Assembly: GCA_021777335.1 (NCBI GenBank)
Contig: JAJYDT010000008.1
Coordinates: forward strand, 1 to 62,154
DNA length: 62,154 nucleotides
DNA from: Pseudomonadota bacterium
Lineage (GTDB): Bacteria > Pseudomonadota > Gammaproteobacteria > Acidiferrobacterales > Acidiferrobacteraceae
Direction of reading: 5' to 3'
Shown here: positions 9,502 through 45,735 of the stretch, one piece after another
Layout: each line of letters starts with the position of its first letter
Numbering within the stretch: position 1 is the stretch's first letter
Notes under the pieces: model-generated
Database searches by the model: none
What the model was told of the DNA's origin: nothing
What the model saw: only the letters and a program-made list of their open reading frames with translations
Translations under genes and position numbers: made by a program

Positions 9502-10578
9502 CGGCGTGTGGGACTGGGCGGTTCGGTCAGAAGTAGTGTGTTGCGTCGCGTATTCTACGCGCTTGTGATTCATTGTCCCAGATTGGTTGAAGGCCCTCGG
9601 TAGGCATCGGGGTCTCGCGATGTCCACGGGTTTGGGTTGTCCGTCCCGTGCGACGAAACTCCCATTATGCTGTAATCGCCACGATTTTAAGGGGATATCC
9701 TCCGTCGTGGCAGATTCGCCAGGTGGGTCGCATAGGCGCGCGGATATTGAGTGACTCATTTTGATGCCGGGGCGGAATGTAGGAGGAGGATCACCACTCA
9801 TGGTGCGCAGCGCTTGGTTTACATCTAATGGAATTATTTTGAGTGCACGAACGATGACAAGGTCGGGGACAGATTGCTACGATTCCAGATGACCAGGGCG
9901 TTCGGGATATGGCAGTTGATTGCCGCTTTTTTCGTAAAAGGTGATAGCCGCTACGATCAGCAATCTTCCACCGGGTGGCTAGGGGCGGCGTTGTCGCGAT
10001 TCCCGAATGGATCCAGCCATCATCATGGATGCGGAGCCGGGAGATCTGTTCACTATCCTTAACATTGTGAATCTTGTGTCCCCTGCGAGAGCGCAGGAGC
10101 CGATCCAGTCATTCTGACAGCCGACCTTCCGATAAGAGGTCTACGCCTGTTTTGGAGCTTCCTGCGAGACGGCACGCAGGGATTCCGGGCTGCCTGATGC
10201 GATGAGCGGGTCGCCGGATCAGGACAAAGACCACAGGTTTGAGCGGACCACAGGGTGATCTTGTATTTTCTGAGTCCGGTAATCGCAAGGGCAGGGCTGG
10301 AGATATCTGCCCGCCCGGTCTGTGCAGTCGGTCTTGAGGTATCTTCCGTATCAAGATCCATGCCCTCGTCGGGCTCGGGTAGCCCCGTCGCTGCCCATCG
10401 GCCTGTGATCGTTTTCGGACGGGTAATCGTTTACGATATTAGGTCCGGAACGTCTCGCGCCAGTCCCTGAATGGCAGGCAACGGGGTACGCACGCGGTCT
10501 TTTTGCCAGGTTTAGGGCTAAGCCGCGTTTGGTGGATGGCCCCCGGTTTGGGCATAATCGTTGCGCACACGAGAGCAG
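9502..10578. other. Long gene-poor stretch
   Basis: About 1.08 kb with no gene I can support. The upper part of the MarC open frame (to 9801) and small frames around 9874-10470 have no recognisable product. A 6-bp-stem hairpin lies at 10082-10097 and a CCACGA/TCGTGG pair near 9679-9710; neither has a T-run. Confidence 0.5.
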
Positions 10579-11553
10579 ATGGCGATGGAGCATACATTCA
10601 AAGCGCTAGCCCTCACCGAATCGGTCCGCATCTGGTTGACGGAGATGTACACAAACGAGGATTTTGATCCGAAAAAAGCGCGGGTGAAGCTGCGAAAGGA
10701 TCTGCCCAAAGGGTTTAATCCCAGATCGATCGATTCCCGGTTATGCAAACAGGACCATCTGACGCTGATAGGCATATGGCATGTTGATCCCGGGAGCCCC
10801 GTGTTCCGGAACGTCACGCGGGTGATTGAGGATATCCGCGCGGCCATCATGCGTGAGCCGGAGATCAAATCGATCAGTGCTATCCAGATTGCCGCAAGGA
10901 CAAAGGTCAAAGACCGAGATGTCGAGCGTGCGCTTTTCCTGATGAGCGAACTCGGGACATTTCGCACTGTCGGCATGGGTGCGAGCGGATGCCGTTATTC
11001 ATCAATCAGCTTCGAGGACCTCGGCGAGGACGTGTACGACGCCTACCTTTATTTTGACAGCCTCGACAATGTCATGGAAGAGTTCTACACGCGTAGGCAG
11101 GGCTCTTCCGAAGCCCTAGTGACGTTAAAACGCCATCTTGTGAAGCCAGATACCGCGTTCATCATTGCATCCGCGCATGCGCCGGGCGCGGATGCGCGCG
11201 AGATCTGCCGTGTTATTAAAGAGGTGTTCGCAGGCAATGACATTGAGGCGTCCAGCACGGATGACCTGGATGGTCATGGGGGCATCACCGAGTGGGTGCT
11301 TAAGCAAATCCGTGAAAGTGAATACTTGGTCGCTGACTTGTCGGGTGGTTACCCGGATGTTTATTACGGGGTAGGCTATGCCCATGCCCTTGGAAGAGAT
11401 CCGATTCTGTATCTGAAGGAATCTATGGGGCTTCTGACCCCGCTGGATCGCCGTGACGTGCGGGAGTTCCGGGATACCGACGATCTCAGAAACAAGCTTG
11501 CTACCCGGCTGCGTTCGATCCGGACCGGAAGAGGCAAGACGGGCGGAGGCTGA
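10579..11553 (+). CDS. Stand-alone protein with nucleoside deoxyribosyltransferase/TIR-like C-terminal domain
   Basis: About 324 residues from the ATG at 10579 (ATG at 10585 and TTG at 10561 are alternatives; the ribosome site is weak). The N-terminal ~170 residues form an uncharacterised helical domain with PKGFNPRSIDSRL and LIGIWHVDP segments. From about 190 on is a small Rossmann-like domain: AFIIASAHAPG, ITEWVLKQI, then ADLSGGYPDVYYG and GYAHALGRDPILY. The last motif matches nucleoside 2-deoxyribosyltransferase-like and TIR-like proteins that act on nucleotides or NAD, several of them in phage defence. In that motif the usual catalytic Glu (YYE) is Gly (codon GGG, 11368-11370). No partner gene is adjacent. 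Function unknown. Confidence 0.75.
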   Translation: MAMEHTFKALALTESVRIWLTEMYTNEDFDPKKARVKLRKDLPKGFNPRSIDSRLCKQDHLTLIGIWHVDPGSPVFRNVTRVIEDIRAAIMREPEIKSISAIQIAARTKVKDRDVERALFLMSELGTFRTVGMGASGCRYSSISFEDLGEDVYDAYLYFDSLDNVMEEFYTRRQGSSEALVTLKRHLVKPDTAFIIASAHAPGADAREICRVIKEVFAGNDIEASSTDDLDGHGGITEWVLKQIRESEYLVADLSGGYPDVYYGVGYAHALGRDPILYLKESMGLLTPLDRRDVREFRDTDDLRNKLATRLRSIRTGRGKTGGG

Positions 11554-11593
11554 TGACGACAGGACGCGTGCAGTATCTTGATGATCGGTGGCG

Positions 11594-12211
11594 TTATCGC
11601 ACGGTCGGTTCCGGTGAAAAAGTTTGTCGGAGGACTGTTGCCCGTTCAATGATTACCGCGCGTGTCGGCAGATTCTGAAACGACCCGAGTGTTTCGGTAG
11701 GAACCGCCTCGATCTTATCGACCACACGCATGCCCCGAATCACATGCCCAAACACACAGTAACCCCATCCTGAAAGAGTCTTCGCCCGGAAATTGAGGGG
11801 CTGGTTATTCGCGGTATTGATGAAGAACTGGGCGGTCGCCGAATCCGGATCGCTCGTACGCGCCATGGCGATCGTCCCAATACGGTTCTTCAAGCCGTTG
11901 TCGGCCTCGTTTCTGATCGGCGGCCCTGTCGGTTTCTCTCGAAGCTCAGGTGTGAACCCCCCGCCTTGGATCATGAATCCTGGGATGACCCGGTGGAATA
12001 TCGTTCCATTATAAAATCCGGTGCGTACATAGTGCAGAAAGTTGCTGACGGTCTTTGGCGCTTTTTCGGGGTAAAGCTCGATCTCGATCACCCCAAGCGT
12101 TGTGCGGAACTCAACCGTCGGATTCGTCCTTACGACACCCGCCGTTGCATAATGCACGTATCCGAGCCACAGAACGAGCAGTGGTACGAGATTGGCAAAC
12201 CGACGTATCAT
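11594..12211 (-). CDS. Periplasmic cyclophilin-type peptidyl-prolyl cis-trans isomerase
   Basis: A 205-residue PPIase catalysing proline isomerisation during protein folding. The signal peptide covers about residues 1-25 (hydrophobic core VPLLVLWLGYV), so the protein should be exported. The cyclophilin core is clear: IELYPEKAPKTVSNF, FHRVIPGFMIQGG, RTSDPDSATAQFFIN and WGYCVFGHVIRGM. The frame is open to 12274, but a GGGAGA site 5 nt upstream fixes the start at 12211. It is most like PpiA. The stop faces that of the deoxyribosyltransferase-like gene only 40 bp away. Confidence 0.92.
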   Translation of the reverse strand: MIRRFANLVPLLVLWLGYVHYATAGVVRTNPTVEFRTTLGVIEIELYPEKAPKTVSNFLHYVRTGFYNGTIFHRVIPGFMIQGGGFTPELREKPTGPPIRNEADNGLKNRIGTIAMARTSDPDSATAQFFINTANNQPLNFRAKTLSGWGYCVFGHVIRGMRVVDKIEAVPTETLGSFQNLPTRAVIIERATVLRQTFSPEPTVR

Positions 12212-12692
12212 GCGATTCTCCCTCGGGTATTTCGCCAAGATACAACGTGTCGTTACCAAGGTCCATTGCTGCATCTAGGAGCCATAGCAGTGCCCACCGT
12301 GCTTAGATGCTCCGGAGCAGAGGTGGTGTTTATGGGTGGCTCATCGGACCTATCCACATTTATACCCACAGCAGTTTTGGCGTCGTTGCGGTAGTAACGC
12401 ATACGCTACGAGTGCCCCCTAGGCCCCTAAAGACCGAAGCAATTCATGGCGAGCACCCCCGATTTTGGCAGCAATTTGGCAGCCGTATTTGAGTACATCG
12501 AAGTAGACTACAATCGAATCTGCCGACACAACGTGAATGGATATCTCAGCCCGGATGAGTTTTGGACATCAAGATGTTGATTAACCTCATGTTTGTTGAC
12601 GGCTCTCAGAGTCAGTATTTTTACTCACCCAATGGCCGACCGCCGAAAACCCAGTCTCGGCATATCCGGATCGAAGCCATTTTTCTTTTCCC
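12212..12692. other. Intergenic region before the exopolysaccharide cluster
   Basis: A 480-bp divergent spacer. It should hold the cyclophilin promoter and that of the forward polysaccharide block. No JUMPStart-like element was seen. A TTGACG at 12597-12602 has an AT-rich tract about 16-17 bp downstream and is a weak promoter candidate. No open frame here looks real. Confidence 0.45.
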
Positions 12693-36212: not shown

Positions 36213-38264
36213 TCATAGCCGCCGCAGCACCTTCATGCACTGTCCTTCGAGCCGAAGCCCGGACAACGACGCCTCGCATCCATCGGCAGGGAGGGCGGGC
36301 GTCCAGCCGGTGCTGAACTCCGGGGGGAGCTGAAATTCGACCGGTTGTGGGTCGCTGTTCATCAGCAGCAGGAAATCATCATCCAAGCCCGCCCCTGGAA
36401 GCAGGACGGCAAGCGCGTACCGGTTGGGGTTAATCCATCCTGTCTCGTCAAGCTCCTGGCCTTCGGCCCCGAACCACAATACGTCCTCATGGCCGTTATG
36501 CCGGCCGTTAAAGAAGGTCCCGCGGCGGAACACGGGATGGGCCCGTCGCAGACGGATCAGCTGCGCGACAAACTCCCCTATGTGGGTAGATCGAGGATCC
36601 CCGCCCCAGTTGATCCAGCTAAGCGGATTATCCTGGCAGTAGGCGTTGTTATTGCCGCTCTGTGTGCGCCCCATCTCGTCGCCTGCGAGCAACATAGGTA
36701 CCCCTTGAGAGAGCAGTAGCGTCGTCAGCAGGTTGCGTTTCTGCCGATCGCGCAGGGCGTTGATCGTCGCGTCATCAGTTGGCCCCTCGACACCGCAGTT
36801 CCAGCTGAAATTCTCGGTGGCTCCATCCGCGTTGTCCTCGAGGTTCTGCTCGTTGTGCTTTTCGTTATAACTCACGAGATCGGTGAGGGTGAACCCATCG
36901 TGCGAGGTAATGAAATTGATGGATGCCGACGGTCTGCGGTCACGCGTCTGATAGAGGTCGCTCGATCCGCTCAATCGCGAGGCAAGCTCTCCCGCAAACC
37001 CAGCATCTCCGCGCCAGTACCTCCGTATGCTGTCGCGATACCGGCCGTTCCATTCGCTCCATCCCCCCGGAAAATTTCCTGCCTGATACCCATGAATTCC
37101 GACGTCCCAGGGTTCCGCGATCAGCTTGACGCCGGAAAGGACCGGGTCCTGCTGGATCATGCTGAAGAATGTGTTGCTCCAGTCGGAGCCGTTCGTGTCC
37201 CGGCCAAGTGTCGCGGCAAGGTCAAAGCGGAAACCATCGACATGCATCTCATCAACCCAGTAGCGCAGACTGTCCATGATGAGCTTCTGTACCTGAGGAT
37301 GCGTGACATTGAGTGTGTTCCCGCATCCTGTGACGTTTATATAGTGTCGAGGTGAGTTCGGATTGAGCCAATAATAGGACGCATTGTCGATTCCCCGGAA
37401 TGATAGGGTAGGACCGAGCTGGTCGCCTTCACCCGTATGGTTGTATACGACATCAAGAATCACCTCGATCCCTGCTTGGTGCATGCGTTTTACGAGCATT
37501 TTGAATTCGCTGATATGTCCGCTTGCACAGTAAGGGGTATGCGGCGCGAAGTAACCTATGGAGTTGTAGCCCCAGTAGTTGCGCAGGTTGTGGTTCACAA
37601 GCCAGCGATCATCGACAAAGGCATGAATGGGCATCAGTTCGATGGCGCTGATGCCTAGCCGGGTGAAATGATCTATGACCGGTTCTGCGGCGAGTCCGGC
37701 GAAGGTTCCTCGAAACGGCGCGGCCACGTCCGGGTGCTGGATCGTAAAGCCACGGACGTGCAGTTCGTAGATGACTGTGTTCTCCCATGAAATGCGCGGG
37801 GGCGCATCGTTGTCCCAGTTGAACGCAGTGTCGGCAACCTGGCACTTCGGCATTCCGGGCGCGCTGTCTTTGTGGTCAAAAGAAAGATCTCGGTTGTGGC
37901 TGTCCACGCAATAGCCGAACTGAGCATCGCTCCAGCGCATATTTCCGACGATCGCGCGCGCGTAGGGGTCAAGCAGCAGTTTGTTCGGATTGAAGCGGTG
38001 GCCCCGCTCCGGTTCGTAGGGGCCGCTTATGCGATAGCCGTAAAGCTGTCCGGGCCGCACGTCGGGAAGATAGCCGTGCCACACATTGTGGATGTGCTCT
38101 GGTAGATCGAGGGTCGCGATTTCGCTCTGGCCAGTGTCGTCGAACAGGCACAGCTGGACCCGTTCAGCGTGCTCTGAGAAGAGCGCGAAATTCACGCCGC
38201 TGCCGTCCCAGGTGGCGCCAAGAGGCTCCGGTTTTCCCGGGAGGACGCGAGGATTTCCGTTCAC
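36213..38264 (-). CDS. glgX: Glycogen debranching enzyme (isoamylase-type GH13)
   Basis: A 683-residue debranching enzyme that cleaves alpha-1,6 branches of glycogen. An N-terminal CBM48-type domain ([19 protein letters not shown]) precedes the GH13 barrel with DVVYNHT, the nucleophile in [12 protein letters not shown], the acid/base in [10 protein letters not shown] and the Asp in [10 protein letters not shown]. Length fits GlgX/TreX. It starts inside the last codons of the treS-maltokinase gene (4-bp overlap), indicating one operon. Confidence 0.95.
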
Positions 38265-41200
38265 GTGCCTTCAGCCATCTCCGGTATGCGGGTGTTCTCA
38301 AGCAGTGCAATCAGGCCGCGAAGAGGCAGTATAATCCATGCTGGCCGGTTCGCGAGTTCGTAGCGGATCTCGTAGCACACCTTATCCCACAGGAGTAGCT
38401 CGAGTAGCGGATCGGCAAGGGCGCCCGACGGATCCTGAAGCGCAAGACCCGTGGTGTCGGCATAGCCCTCAAGGAACAACCGTCGCGCTCCTCGCTCCCA
38501 TTCAGCCGCGGACTGCTCGAGCACCGACATGTCCAGGGCGCGGTCGGGGGTCACGAGCCTCAGCGCCGCAAATGCCGCGTAGCTGAATGAACGCAGCATC
38601 CCCGCCACGTCCCGCAGGGGAGATTGCTTGTGCCTGCGGGTATCAATTGATCGCATGGGTTCACCCTCGAAATCCACGATCACAAGATCGTTATCGACCA
38701 CCAGCACCTGCCCAAGATGGTAATCACCATGGCAGCGCGTCTTGATCGCAGCCTCTGGGGCGCGTGTGCGCAGGACACCGATGTGTGCAAGGATCTCCTC
38801 GCGCCGCGCGCAGACCTGGTCAATAAGGGCTCCAGCTGCGGGCTCCAGTTCCGCGCGCGCACTTTCGAGTTGTGCCAGCGCTGATTCTGCCGCTTTAGCG
38901 GCTTCGTCAAACCAACCGAGACATTCGTCGCGGGACGCGACTTCCGGCTCAAACGCGGGAATGCTTGTCGGAACCGCAAGTGCACGGTGCAGCTCCCCGG
39001 TGCGCACGCCGAGCTGGCGCAGCAGGATCGCATACACCGCCCGGTTCGCATCGTCCTGAAGTTTTCCTGGCGTGGCGCGCGCGGCGCGTTCGTGGTCGAG
39101 ATGCCGCTGGAGATAGCTTACAATCTGAGACCAGCCGTCGCCTTGATTGGGTACAAATGCCTGCAGGAGTCCAAGCACTGTGGTTTCCCCTTCAGGGGAG
39201 ACGTGTTCGAAGTATCCAGCGAGCGGTGCGATGTGCGCGAATGGTGAGGTCTCGGTAAGAAACGCAGTCATCTCGAGCTCCGGACTGATCCCTGTCTCGA
39301 GCCGACGGTACCCCTTCAGTATGAGGCGTTCACCGACGACCACAGAGGTATGCGTTTGTTCGACGCCGAGCACGTGTGAGCCCAATGTTGTCGCATCCGT
39401 TCCGGCGAGTGCCCCGAAGCGGGCAGTAGCGTGGAAGCGGATCTCGCTGCCGCCGCAAGGCATCCGGTGTCCATCACGCATCGCCTGTATGACCGCAGTG
39501 CAGAATCCAGGATCGGAGTAGGCGTCGAGCAGCAAGCCGGGCTTGGCGCCCCGCCGCACGCGAACGAGCGGACGGTGGCCGAGCAGGCGGATATGATCCT
39601 CGTTCCATTCCTCCCAGACGATCGAGAGTGGTGCGAAGTAGCGCGTCCCGCCACTCTCAATGATGGCAAGCAAAGCATTCATTGTCCCGCATTCCCATTC
39701 TTGATGCTCTAGTATGTGCACCGGCCCGTGGTGCCGCATGATCCAGCGTTGTTGCGCGAGGTAATGTGGCCACAGTTCCCCGAGCATGCGGTCGCGCGCC
39801 TGCTCTGCCAGGTGCTGCTGTACCAGGTCTGCATTAGTCAGGGTTTCTGGGAACAGTGTCCGCCATCCAGCGAAGAGCACAAGCACCGGCAGATCAAGGA
39901 CCGAAGGATATTCCTCGTGCCACGGTGGCACGAGTGCCTCGCGGCTCAGTTCGAACCAATAGAATCCGTGTCCGGGCAGTGTCAGCAGGTAGGGCATCTC
40001 TCCGATCGGTGGAAATGGGGTGCGCCCGAGCAGTTCGACCGGTACCAACCCCTTGTGGTCCGTCAGATCGAGCTCCACGGGCTGAGCAGCGCGCGACAGA
40101 TTCGTCACACATAGAATCGTTTCTTCGCCGTACTGGCGGATGAAGGCAAGGACCTTGCGGTTCCCAGGCGTCAGGAGTGCAAGTTTCCCGCGGCCGAAGG
40201 CGCGGTGCGCCTTGCGCACCGCGAGCAGCCGCTTCATCCAGTTGAGCAGTGAGAACGGATCCCCCGACTGTGCCTCGACATTGACGGCCTGATAGCCGTA
40301 TACCGCGTCCATCACGGGCGGCAGGTAAAGGCGTGCGGGGTCGGCTTGCGAAAATCCGGCGTTCCGGTCGGGACTCCACTGCATGGGTGTGCGCACGCCA
40401 TTGCGGTCGCCGACATAGATATTGTCGCCCATGCCGATATCATCGCCGTAATAGATGATAGGGCTTCCAGGTAGCGACAGCAGGAGATTGTTCAGAAGCC
40501 GGATACGGTCGATGTCGTTGTCCACGAGTGAGGCGAGCCGGCGGCGGATCCCGAGATTGAGGCGCATGCGCGGGTCGCGCGCATACACTTGATAGAGATA
40601 GTCCCGCTCGCGGTCCGTCACCATCTCTAGGGTAAGCTCGTCGTGGTTGCGCAGAAATACTGCCCACTGGCAGTTGTCCGGAATGTCGGGCGTCTGGGCC
40701 ATGATCTCGGAGATCGGATGCCGGTCTTCCTGGGCGACCGCCATGAAGATCCGGGGCATCAGCGGAAAATGGAATGCCATGTGGCACTCGTCGCCATCTC
40801 CAAAATACGGACGGACATCCTCGGGCCACTGGTTCGCCTCCGCAAGTAGCATCCGGTTCCCGTAGCGGCGATCCAGTTCACGGCGTATTTTCCGCAGTAC
40901 CTCGTGGCTTTCAGGAAGATTCTCGTTGCTTGTCCCTTCGCGTTCGCACAGATACGGGATGGCGTCAAGTCTCAAGCCGTCGATACCCATGTCGAGCCAG
41001 AACCGCATGACGCGTAACACCGCATCAAGGACCCTGGGGTTGTCGTAATTAAGGTCTGGTTGGTGCGAGAAGAATCGGTGCCAGTAGTACTGCTGTGCCA
41101 CATTGTCCCACATCCAGTTCGACGTTTCCGTGTCGCGAAAGATGATCCGGGTGCCCTCGTACTTTTTGCAGGTGTCACTCCATACATAGAACGCGCGCTT

Positions 41201-41614
41201 GGCAGAGCCCTTCGGTGCGTTACGCGCCGCTTGGAACCACGGATGCTGGTCCGAGGTGTGATTGATCACGAGTTCGGTGATGATCCGCAGGCCGCGCGCG
41301 TGCGCCTCGCGAATGAACCGTCGCACATCGCGCACCGTTCCATAGTCCGGGTGCACGCAGAAATAGTCGGAGATGTCATAGCCATCGTCCCTTAGCGGCG
41401 AGGGGTAAAACGGCAGCAGCCACAGGGTATTTACGCCGAGATCCTGGATGTACCCGAGCTTTTCTATGAGCCCTTGGAAATCACCGACGCCATCGTTGTT
41501 GCCATCGTAGAATGAGCGCACGTGGAGCTGGTAGATCACGGCGTCTTTGTACCAGAGGGGATCGTTTTCGACGACTACCCTATACTCGCGCGGCATACCT
41601 TCATTGGACGTCAT
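38261..41614 (-). CDS. treS: Trehalose synthase fused to maltokinase (TreS-Pep2)
   Basis: A 1117-residue two-domain protein. Residues ~1-560 are GH13 trehalose synthase, interconverting trehalose and maltose: [11 protein letters not shown] (nucleophile), [12 protein letters not shown] (acid/base), [12 protein letters not shown]. From about 590 to the end is a maltokinase that phosphorylates maltose to maltose-1-phosphate, with a kinase-type catalytic segment [11 protein letters not shown] and the metal site VDFEGEP. The fusion channels maltose to GlgE, whose gene precedes it with a 4-bp overlap. The same fusion is known in other bacteria using the GlgE route. Confidence 0.95.
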
Positions 41615-43596
41615 GGCAGAGGATCGCGTTGCAGCTCGAAGACATGGGCTGGCGCGCGTGCGGGATCGAGCTCAACATAGTTACGCCCGGGATGCCACAC
41701 GTAACGTGTACCGGAGAGCACGTCGAGCATCCCGTAGTTCTCGCGGCCGGAGAGATTGATCTCGTCAGGTACGAGGTCGACCCACCCGGACTGGACATGG
41801 TGCGGATCTAGGTTTACCACCACCACGACGACATTCATCTCGTGGCGTTTGCTGTAGCAAATCAGTGCCTCGTTGTCGACCGTATGAAAACGCAGGGTAA
41901 GATCGTTTTGCAGCGCTGGATTCCCGTGCCGTGCCGAGTTGAGCGCCGCGAGTAATCCTCGCAGGCTTTCCGGCGCATCCAGGTTCCAGGAGCGCAGCTG
42001 ATACTTTTCCGAGTTCAGGTACTCTTCAGAACCCGGGGCCATTGGCTTGTTTTCACAAAGCTCGAAAGCGGGTCCGTAAATGCCATAGTTGGCCGATAGT
42101 GTGGCTGCCAGCACGGCCCGGAGCGCAAATGCGGGCGCTGCAGCATGCTGCAGCGCGCTAGGGAGAATGTCCGGCGTGTTAGGCCACACATTTGGCCAGA
42201 AATATTCACGCAATGGTGTTGCCGCAAGCTCCGTAAAGTATTCCGTAAGCTCCTTCTTCGAGTTGCGCCAAGTGAAGTAGGTATAGGACTGCGTGAAACC
42301 CACCTTTGCAAGGTGTTCCATCACGCGGGGGCGCGTGAATGCCTCGGAGAGGAAGATGACGTCGGGGTGTGCTGTTTTTATGTGACCGATAACCCATTCC
42401 CAGAATGCAAATGGTTTGGTATGGGGGTTATCGACACGGAAGATGCGGACGCCTTCATCCGTCCAATGCAGGAAAACAGCGAGCAACTCCTGCCACAGGG
42501 TAGGGGCGTCTGTCGATTCGAAATCAAACGGGTAGATATCCTCGTATCGCTTCGGCGGATTTTCTGCGTACTGGATCGCTCTGTCCGCGCGGCGCCTGAA
42601 CCATGCGGGATGCTCATGGACATAGGGGTGCTCTGGTGAACATTGAAACGCGATATCGAGTGCAATTTCGAGTCCTAGACCCTGAGCGGCGTCGCGAAAT
42701 GTGCGAAAATCCTCAAGAGTACCGAGCGCAGGATGTACTGCCTTGTGCCCGCCCATGTCGGACCCAATGGCCCATGGACTGCCTACGTCATCCGGGGATG
42801 CATGCGGAGTATTGTTCGGACCCTTGCGATGCGCTTTCCCGATCGGATGGATCGGTGGCAGGTACACGACATCAAAGCCGAGGTCCGCGACGTAACGCAG
42901 CCGGTCCAGGCAGTTGAGGAGACGGGCGTGTCGTCCATTGCCCGCGCATGAGCGGGGGAAGAATTCATACCACGATCCGAAGCGGGCGCGCAGGCGTTCG
43001 ACCTGCAGCGGAAGTGCAGGCTCAAGACGTTTCCACAGGTGCCGGTCTCCGTAGCGCTCCATCAGGTGCAGGCATTCCTCGCCGAGCGCGATCTCCACGG
43101 CGTCGGCATACGGTGGACGTGTGCATTCGAGCATTTGTCCGATCTGATTCAGACGCTGCGCATCTCCGGAGTCGGCACGCCCAGCGGACGCACGTACCAT
43201 CGCCGCCCCTTCCTTCAGCGCGTTCTCGAGATCCTCATTGGCATCACGCCGTTTCTGAAGGTCGCGCCGCCATGTCCCGAAATGGTCGATCCCTGCCACG
43301 ATCGTGTAATAGTGCCGTCCCAGGCGCATTACCGAGAAGACAGCACGCCAGCGATCGTTTCCGAGCAGTGTCATGCGCTCTTCCTGCCAATGCAGCTCGG
43401 TTTCATGCCGATGCAGTAGTCGGCACGAAACCTCATCATGGCCATCTGCGAATACGTCCGCTTCAACCACAATGATCTCACCTTCGGCGCGTCGGACCGC
43501 GAAGCGGCCCCCGTCGACGGCGGGCTGCACGTTCCCGATTACCGTTCGGCGCCGGTCCCCCTGTTCGAGGGTGCGCGGATCATCAGCTGCCTGCAT
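41611..43596 (-). CDS. glgE: Alpha-1,4-glucan:maltose-1-phosphate maltosyltransferase
   Basis: About 661 residues from the ATG at 43596; the frame is open to 43737, but that stretch is antisense to the glgB end. GlgE extends alpha-glucan with maltose from maltose-1-phosphate. Motifs are [10 protein letters not shown], the nucleophile in [10 protein letters not shown], the acid/base in [11 protein letters not shown] and [12 protein letters not shown]. The N-terminal beta domain ends in [18 protein letters not shown]. The gene overlaps glgB by 14 bp upstream and treS by 4 bp downstream. Confidence 0.95.
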
Positions 43597-45502
43597 GCCA
43601 GATGGCCTCCGGCTGCAGTAAGACGATGGCAAGAGGTGGCAGGGAAAGCGCGAGCGAGTTGGCGTGCCCATGCATCGGCAGCGACTCGCTCGCGAGCGCG
43701 CCTGCATTGCCGACACCGCTTCCCCCGAACTGCACATGGTCGCTGTTCATATGTTCCCGCCAGACGCCGCCTGTCGGGACACCAATGCGATAGCTGTGCC
43801 GCGGCACTGGTGTGAAATTCGCCACAGCCAGCACCATGCCACCGGAACGGTCTTTGCGCAGGAAGACCAGTACGCTCTGGTCGTGGTCGCTCTGGTCAAT
43901 CCACGCGAAGCCCTCCGGGCTGAAGTCATCTTCGTACAGCGCAGGAGTTTTCCGGTAGAAGTGGCAGAGTGCGCGAACCCAGCGTCGCATGTTCTCGTGC
44001 GCGGGCTGTGCGAGCAGGTGCCAGTCGAGACTCTGATCGTGATTCCATTCCTGCCATTGCGCGAATTCTCCACCCATAAACATGAGTTTTTTTCCAGGGT
44101 GCGCGTACATATAGCCGAAGAGCAGTCGCAGGTTTGCCATGCGCTGCCACTCGTCGCCCGGCATGCGTCCGATGAGTGAGCCTTTGCCGTACACGACTTC
44201 GTCGTGTGATAGGGGAAGCATGTAGTTCTCGTGGTACGCGTAGACCATGCTGAACGTGAGGTCGTTCTGGTGGTACCTGCGATACAGCGGATCTCGGGCG
44301 AAGTAGGTCAGTGTGTCGTGCATCCAGCCCATGTTCCATTTCATCCCGAATCCAAGACCGCCAACGTCAGTCGGCCGGGACACCATGGGCCACGCCGTTG
44401 ATTCCTCGGCAATCGTCTGCACATCTGGATGTTCGCGGTAGACCTGTTCATTCAGGACCCTCAGGAAATGCACCGCGTCCAGATTCTCCCTACCCCCATA
44501 CTGGTTGGGCACCCACTCGCCGGGCGCCCGTGCGTAGTCTAGGTACAGCATTGACGCTACCCCATCGACCCTGAGCGCATCGATGTGATATCGCGTGAGC
44601 CAAAAAAGTGCGCTGCTAGTCAGGAACTCGCGCACCTCGGTGCGGCCGTAGTTGAACACGCCGCTCTGCCATTCCGGATGAAATCCCTGGCGTGGGTCCG
44701 CATGTTCGTAAATACAGGTGCCGTCGAAGACGGCGAGGCCGTGCGCATCGTTTGGAAAATGCGCTGGCACCCAGTCCAGGATGACACCGATGCCTGCCTG
44801 ATGCAGGCTGTCTATCAGGTACATGAGGTCCTCAGGGCTTCCAAAGCGAGCACTTGGTGCAAAGTAGCCGGTTGTCTGATACCCCCAGGATCCATAAAAC
44901 GGATGTTCGGTGAGCGGCATGAACTCGACGTGCGTAAATCCCATATCGCGCACGTAATCAGTAAGCGGTGCCGCGAGTTCCCGATATCCAAGGAGGCGGT
45001 TGCCGTCTCCACGGCGCCAGGATCCAAGATGCACCTCGTAGACGGACCACGGTGACGCGAGCCCGTTTGCGGCCCCACGCGCGTGCATCCATTCGGCGTC
45101 GTTCCAGATATGAAGGAATGTGTGGGTGACCGACGCCGTGCGTGGAGGGGCCTCATGCAGGAAGCCGCAGGGGTCGGCCTTTTCGACCGACCCACCTTGG
45201 CGCGTACGCATGTGGTACTTGTACAGTGCGCCAGCGGCAATCCCGGGAATGAACCCGGTCCATATCCCAGTGCTGCGAACTGGCTGAAGGATATGGGCGC
45301 CTGGCCGCCAACCGTTGAAATCCCCGATGACGGATACCGTCTCTGCATTGGGGGCCCAGACGGCGAAACAGGTACCGTCAGAGGTTATATGCGCACCGAG
45401 TTTATCGTAGAGATGGAAATGGCGGCCTTCTTGGAAGAGATGCTGATCATAGTCACCGAATCGGCTGTCCGGGGCCATGTCGCTGGACGATGCTGGTTGC
45501 AT
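43583..45502 (-). CDS. glgB: 1,4-alpha-glucan branching enzyme
   Basis: About 639 residues from the ATG at 45502; a GTG at 45565 and an ATG at 45478 are alternatives and none has a clear ribosome site. GlgB makes alpha-1,6 branches. The N-terminal CBM48 ([20 protein letters not shown]) leads to the GH13 barrel: [15 protein letters not shown] (nucleophile), [10 protein letters not shown] (acid/base), [14 protein letters not shown]. It lacks the extra N1 module of E. coli GlgB, as is common. It is the first gene of the alpha-glucan operon. Confidence 0.94.
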
Positions 45503-45735
45503 GGTTTCGCTTCGGCATTCCCGGGAAGATGTGATCGTATGGCCTGAGACGGCGCTGCGGTTCACTCGCGGTTTACTCTATGTGTGAGGCGCATTCCCTT
45601 GTATCCGACCATTGGCGGTTTCGTCAGAAGTGCCGCCGCCGTTGCTACATGACGGCGACATGGGAACAACGGCAGCCGCAGGGACAAGGACATCCCTGCA
45701 GCGATGACAGAAGCATCCATCCTCCTCTGTAGACG
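45503..45735. other. Spacer between glgB and the outer-membrane protein gene
   Basis: A 233-bp gap expected to hold the promoter of the alpha-glucan operon. A GCAGGGA/TCCCTGC hairpin (45678-45699) lies just after the barrel-protein stop and may end its mRNA, though no T-run follows. Confidence 0.4.

What the first reader, a model, noticed from the sequence alone, without database searches (positions are those of the whole stretch)
10579..11553. Lone deoxyribosyltransferase/TIR-like protein whose family Glu is Gly
The C-terminal domain has the family motif ADLSGGYPDVYYGVGYAHALG, but the residue after YY is Gly where related proteins have Glu as the proposed catalytic base. The codon is GGG (11368-11370), one transition from GAG. 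The N-terminal ~170 residues form a distinct conserved-looking domain with no known function. Such two-domain proteins look like sensor-effector pairs, possibly of a defence system; here the effector may be inactivated or converted to a binding role. It sits alone next to a 1-kb gene-poor stretch.
Basis: partly seen in the sequence, partly recalled or inferred. Interest (0 to 1): 0.55.

Follow-up and report, generated by a model that had tools for sequence, protein, structure and literature searches.

The report
Nucleotide-cleaving domain stripped of catalytic residues
A lone bacterial gene carries a well-preserved nucleotide-enzyme fold whose key catalytic glutamate and several neighbouring pocket residues are gone, so it has probably become a binding protein or is a fading relic of a phage-associated enzyme.

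Summary
The 324-residue ORF at 10579-11553 ends in a domain (residues about 188-318) with the nucleoside deoxyribosyltransferase / DNPH1 / TIR-like fold (best structural match human DNPH1, Z 15.9, 2.1 Å over 125 residues). Gly264 (GGG, 11368-11370) stands where 24 of 24 first-found relatives have Glu. In a wider set 54 of 56 have Glu; the other two have Asn and Met. That Glu aligns with the nucleophile of DNPH1.

The change is not isolated. Arg226 is Ser, Asn260 is Asp, Asn258 is Tyr and Phe289 is Leu, while scaffold residues and Asp228 are kept. The sister sequence, 39% identical and on two viral contigs, has Arg, Asn260, Glu and Phe289 intact, so these four losses happened in this lineage, on a branch about three times longer.

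The N-terminal 185 residues have no relative that I could find and no reliable fold. 'Conserved-looking' and 'sensor-effector' are therefore unsupported. No defence gene was recognised among 10 downstream ORFs scanned.

Best reading: a catalytically dead member of a known enzyme class, probably retooled for binding, less likely decaying. Inactive versions of this class were already known.

The parts
10579..11553 (+). Whole gene: 324-residue protein (an in-frame TTG start at 10561 is also possible)
10579..11139 (+). N-terminal region, residues 1-187: mostly helical, no family, no relative found; residues about 74-146 look winged-helix-like only by predicted secondary structure
11140..11532 (+). 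C-terminal domain, residues 188-318: Rossmannoid deoxyribosyltransferase/DNPH1/TIR-like fold
11254..11256 (+). Codon of Ser226, where 24 of 24 first-found relatives have Arg
11260..11262 (+). Codon of Asp228, invariant in the first-found relatives and kept here
11350..11352 (+). Codon of Tyr258, usually Asn (95 of 108)
11356..11358 (+). Codon of Asp260, usually Asn (22 of 24; 101 of 108)
11368..11370 (+). Codon GGG of Gly264, where the family has its catalytic Glu
11443..11445 (+). Codon of Leu289, usually Phe (22 of 23)
11553..11678 (+). Possible 41-residue ORF whose ATG overlaps the stop of the main gene (TGATG) behind GGAGG; overlaps the 3' end of the cyclophilin gene on the other strand; may be chance
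   Evidence: sequence, translation

Best explanation
The C-terminal domain is a derived, catalytically dead member of the deoxyribosyltransferase/DrHyd (DNPH1-like) class of Rossmannoid domains. Shown: the fold, the loss of the family Glu (Gly264) together with Arg226, Asn258, Asn260 and Phe289, and a sister that keeps Arg, Asn260, Glu and Phe289. Inferred: without the nucleophile the domain cannot form the glycosyl-enzyme intermediate and does not cleave N-glycosidic bonds. The scaffold is kept and now most likely serves as a binding module (for a nucleotide-like ligand or a protein partner) that controls the attached N-terminal region, which may be a DNA- or protein-binding domain of its own. 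By my mapping Asp260 sits where DNPH1 has Gly100, whose backbone NH contacts the substrate phosphate; a negative charge there makes retained binding of a 5'-phosphorylated nucleotide in the old pose unlikely, so a changed ligand or a protein partner is more probable.
For: Glu at this column in 24 of 24 relatives and 54 of 56 with a letter; Arg226 in 24 of 24 and Phe289 in 22 of 23 with a letter, all lost here. The profile aligns the Glu column with Glu of GYELG in Rcl/DNPH1; DNPH1 Glu104 makes the covalent intermediate and E104Q inactivates (PMC10603095, passages). The C-terminal domain is mostly modelled at pLDDT 80-97 per 10-residue block, one inner block at 74, Z 15.9 to DNPH1. The sister on viral contigs L157/L158 keeps RADD, RPNVYYEVG and FD; window plus L157 have support 100/88 and the window's end branch is 1.44 against 0.46. 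The other two Glu-less members also lost Phe289. Inactive versions of this class are described as nucleotide-binding sensors (PMC9503650, passages).
Against: No direct evidence of any ligand or partner. No close homologue exists in the data, so selection on the gene cannot be measured; a long branch fits decay as well as retooling. Other members of the family also deviate at many conserved columns while keeping Glu (window ranks 6th of 109 by share of conserved columns lost). Asp228 and Asp253 remain and could support some altered chemistry.
Confidence: 0.6

Rival explanations
1. The gene is a relic: an acquired enzyme gene that lost function and is decaying without a new role.
For: Singleton, no relative in the 17 other genomes of its family by this protein except one distant domain hit in G011; long branch with several motif residues lost; no operon partner in view.
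Against: 324 codons without a stop and a normal codon-position G+C pattern; the lost residues are motif residues, while scaffold residues (Asp228, Val261, Tyr263, Gly266, Asp290) are kept.
Confidence: 0.22
2. The domain is still an enzyme that uses other residues, for example Asp228, Asp253 or the new Asp260, for an altered N-glycosidase or other reaction.
For: Asp228 is the one residue identical in all 25 rows and is kept; Asp260 is new and lies four residues before Gly264; the family already differs from DNPH1 at the Tyr24 and Asp80 positions, so its chemistry is not known in detail (my reading).
Against: Three of the most constant polar motif positions (Arg226, Asn260, Glu264) are changed. 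By my mapping Asp260 lies at the phosphate-binding turn of DNPH1, not at the sugar. I had no coordinates to test geometry.
Confidence: 0.12
3. The Gly is a sequencing or assembly error in a draft genome (164 contigs).
For: GGG is one transition from GAG; the reads are not available.
Against: Ser226, Tyr258, Asp260 and Leu289 are changed too, so one base error does not explain the pocket.
Confidence: 0.03
4. The protein is a two-domain immune sensor-effector of a defence system.
For: Weak match to a PADLOC 'TIR effector' model (E 0.0062); the fold is shared with SPARTA TIR-APAZ and TIR-STING domains (Z about 13-14).
Against: No PADLOC hit that is not a carbohydrate enzyme (GlgB) among 10 downstream ORFs scanned of 41 ORFs of 200 aa or more in the window; neighbours are a transporter, Crp-type regulator, MarC, cyclophilin and polysaccharide-type genes; the effector residue is missing.
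Confidence: 0.08

Closest known systems
Human/rat DNPH1 (Rcl), 2'-deoxynucleoside 5'-phosphate N-hydrolase
   Same: Fold (Z 15.9, 2.1 Å, 125 residues aligned, 14% identity) and the position of the catalytic Glu in the profile alignment
   Different: All three of its triad positions (Tyr24, Asp80, Glu104) read Phe194, Val240, Gly264 here by my mapping; extra N-terminal region
Nucleoside 2'-deoxyribosyltransferases (Pfam PF05014)
   Same: Same fold; weak profile match (E 0.11, 13 bits)
   Different: Below the curated cut-off of 28.8 bits; catalytic Glu missing
Protein on viral contigs L157/L158 (phrog_3634 relatives, function unknown)
   Same: Sister domain, 39% identical over residues 189-318
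   Different: Keeps Arg, Asn260, Glu and Phe289; no detectable relation in the N-terminal part
Inactive TIR-DrHyd-SLOG domains acting as nucleotide sensors
   Same: Same class of fold with the catalytic residue lost (class described in PMC9503650, passages)
   Different: No ligand, partner or immune locus shown here
CAP12/TIR-STING and SPARTA TIR-APAZ
   Same: Structural similarity of the C-terminal domain (Z 13-14)
   Different: No STING, APAZ or Argonaute part recognised; no TIR family match over a cut-off

Membership tests
Nucleoside 2-deoxyribosyltransferase (PF05014) | Pfam gathering score of 28.8 bits | tested here: not met
   13 bits, E 0.11; intact relatives L157 and L036 also score below it, 22.4 and 19 bits
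Nucleoside 2-deoxyribosyltransferase / DNPH1 class (DrHyd) | Rossmannoid fold of the class | tested here: met
   AF2 C-terminal domain mostly pLDDT 80-97; DNPH1 Z 15.9, deoxyribosyltransferases Z 13-14
Nucleoside 2-deoxyribosyltransferase / DNPH1 class (DrHyd) | Catalytic Glu (nucleophile) | tested here: not met
   Gly264; Glu in 24 of 24 and 54 of 56 relatives; role of Glu104
DNPH1 | Tyr24-Asp80-Glu104 triad | tested here: not met
   Phe194, Val240, Gly264 by mapping through; the family itself mostly lacks the first two
This domain family (relatives) | RxD, NPN and xFD motifs with Glu | tested here: not met
   SxD, YPD, PLD and Gly; membership by descent is still supported by the tree
Inactive TIR-DrHyd-SLOG nucleotide sensor | Loss of catalytic residues with the fold kept | tested here: met
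Inactive TIR-DrHyd-SLOG nucleotide sensor | Binding of a nucleotide ligand | not testable with these tools
   needs binding assays
TIR (CAP12/SPARTA-like) | TIR family profile | tested here: inconclusive
   no PF10137 match; PADLOC TIR effector E 0.0062; structural Z 13-14
Anti-phage defence system | Recognisable defence partners nearby | tested here: not met
   10 of 41 window ORFs of 200 aa or more scanned with PADLOC, only GlgB-type hits; nearest neighbours are not defence genes by Pfam

The most novel reading that the evidence does not exclude
A phage-associated N-glycosidase domain was captured by a bacterial chromosome, stripped of its nucleophile and phosphate-site motif, and fused to an orphan N-terminal domain to make a new regulator whose switch is the old active site. 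Parallel Glu losses in two other lineages (L121 Asn, L124 Met), each with loss of Phe289, would make such conversion a recurrent route from effector to sensor.
Probability: 0.25. Interest if true: 0.5.

Novelty: new variant of a known kind. Interest (0 to 1): 0.3.

Why it matters
Catalytically dead members of this enzyme class help to show how nucleotide-cleaving effectors turn into binding modules. Here the intact sister, the residues lost and two further Glu-less members are identified, so the idea can be tested on a small set of sequences. The single case is of modest importance, because inactive members of the class were known.

Tried and rejected
Search for relatives of the whole protein: GTDB contigs by octapeptide patterns (26 stretches, none a relative), plasmids and phages by tblastn (no match), viral contigs (none), 194, 371, 398 and 48 genomes (these sets overlap). 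The N-terminal matches (E 0.003 to 0.1) I judged to be chance: I read the longest frames of nine of those loci by eye, and they are unrelated genes or frames with stops.

A DNA pattern for WHxDP...YSSI, motifs that I half recalled as conserved in a family of N-terminal domains, was tried on viral and genome contigs; none of the stretches coded a relative. The recalled motif is therefore not confirmed. A first version of the pattern lacked one base and did not match the window itself. A pattern for YYG[FLIMV]GYAHA gave nothing in viral contigs.

The gap left in relatives was sought: the eight stretches fetched around marC share only marC with this part of the window, so no empty site can be shown.

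The N-terminal region folded alone gave pLDDT 36.9 and was not used for a fold search. The 60 distinct viral rows kept were found through a pattern that demands Glu, so they say nothing about how often Glu is lost; I left them out of the Glu counts. In some searches, rows under 95 residues and identical rows were dropped.

The papers search for 'deoxyribosyltransferase' with 'pseudoenzyme' gave 0 papers; one further search listed nothing that I judged on point from the listing.

Full report
Observation. The frame 10561-11553 (+) is open. From ATG 10579 it codes 324 residues. G+C by codon position (0.59/0.43/0.64) resembles the neighbours. The motif and the GGG codon at 11368-11370 are as described. 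The gene stands between marC (-) and a cyclophilin gene (-), with 0.8 to 1.0 kb of gene-poor DNA upstream.

What the C-terminal domain is. Pfam gives PF05014 at E 0.11, below its cut-off. PHROGs gives phrog_3634 (unknown function) at 5e-7. A profile built from 11 rows finds Rcl/DNPH1 in the PDB at 1e-6 and a deoxyribosyltransferase at 0.001. AlphaFold2 with 25 rows gives a Rossmannoid domain from residue 188, mostly at pLDDT 80 to 97. VIA-align puts human DNPH1 first (Z 15.9, rmsd 2.1 Å, 125 aligned, 14% identity); MilB, deoxyribosyltransferases, SPARTA TIR and TIR-STING follow at Z 13 to 15. Foldseek agrees.

The Glu position. All 24 relatives found have Glu where the window has Gly264. A profile search of 398 genomes listed 63 matches; 50 were fetched and the 13 weakest were not. 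Together with earlier loci this gave 57 distinct relatives: 54 Glu, 1 Asn (L121), 1 Met (L124), 1 gap. In one search this Glu aligns with the Glu of GYELG in Rcl/DNPH1. Papers identify DNPH1 Glu104 as the residue that forms the covalent intermediate, and E104Q as inactivating (PMC10603095, passages; PMC10483697, passages).

It is not one change. Arg226 (24 of 24) is Ser, Asn260 (22 of 24) is Asp, Phe289 (22 of 23) is Leu, and Met-Pro-Phe 197-199 (18, 17 and 18 of 24) is Ala-Ser-Ala. Asp228 (24 of 24) is kept. Asn258 (95 of 108) is Tyr. By my mapping through the alignments, Tyr258 and Asp260 correspond to DNPH1 Ser98 and Gly100, both of which contact the 5'-phosphate, and the DNPH1 triad Tyr24-Asp80-Glu104 reads Phe194-Val240-Gly264. 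The family itself mostly lacks the first two of the triad, so of the triad only the Glu loss is specific to the window. By share of conserved columns lost, the window ranks 6th of 109; relatives that keep Glu can rank higher, so divergence alone does not prove inactivity.

History. The nearest relative found is a 283-residue protein on viral contigs L157/L158, 39% identical over residues 189-318, with Arg, Asn260, Glu and Phe289 intact. The tree joins it to the window at 100/88; L036 and L037, both with Glu, come next at 97/61. The window's end branch is 1.44 and that of L157 is 0.46 (few columns, bootstrap not settled). On L157 the gene runs against its neighbours, which match tail-type phage families weakly (tape measure E 0.0003; the other neighbour best matches a phage glycoside hydrolase family at 3e-6 and a minor tail family at 0.0003), so it looks like cargo in a phage tail region. 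Its N-terminal part is not detectably related to that of the window.

The N-terminal region. No Pfam, NCBIfam, PADLOC or PHROGs match covers it. No relative was found. Its model is unreliable. A winged-helix-like order of elements at about 74-146 is a hint only.

Context. Ten ORFs between 28 and 56 kb, of 41 ORFs of 200 aa or more in the window, were scanned with PADLOC; the only hits were to a GlgB-type model, on three ORFs, of which the two given to Pfam are alpha-amylase-type enzymes. Nearby genes are a transporter, a Crp-type regulator, marC, a cyclophilin and, downstream, a flippase-like gene and glycosyltransferase-like ORFs (the last two named by my reading of the sequence; the flippase-like one had no Pfam match). 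There is no tRNA in the window and no repeat that suggests an element. Other genomes of the family have marC without the neighbours seen here, in the eight stretches fetched.

Verdict. The domain is a derived member of the deoxyribosyltransferase/DrHyd class that has lost its nucleophile and neighbouring motif residues. It is most likely catalytically dead and kept for binding (0.6); decay is the main rival (0.22). Inactive members of this class acting as sensors are described in print (PMC9503650, passages), so this is a new variant of a known kind.

Noticed in passing
L121 (G471:C292:5300-7200) and L124 (G394:C23:9700-11700): Two other family members without the catalytic Glu (Asn and Met); both also lost Phe289 and Asp290, suggesting repeated inactivation.
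   Followed up: partly
L157 1072-1923 and L158 (viral contigs): The closest relative of the window's domain is a reversed gene among tail-type genes of a virus contig, like a phage cargo gene.
   Followed up: partly
window 11553-11678 (+): A 41-codon ORF overlaps the stop codon of the gene (TGATG) behind a GGAGG; it could be translationally coupled or chance.
   Followed up: no
window 11594-12274 (-): A cyclophilin with an N-terminal extension, a second copy besides the one at G000:C28; the 17 other genomes of the family each show one match only, 57-64% identical.
   Followed up: partly
window 36213-45565 (-): A run of GlgE/GlgB/alpha-amylase-type genes, a maltosyltransferase glucan pathway.
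   Followed up: no
L126 (G675:C10): One protein gave two separate matches to the domain profile, the second a partial one, possibly a tandem pair.
   Followed up: no
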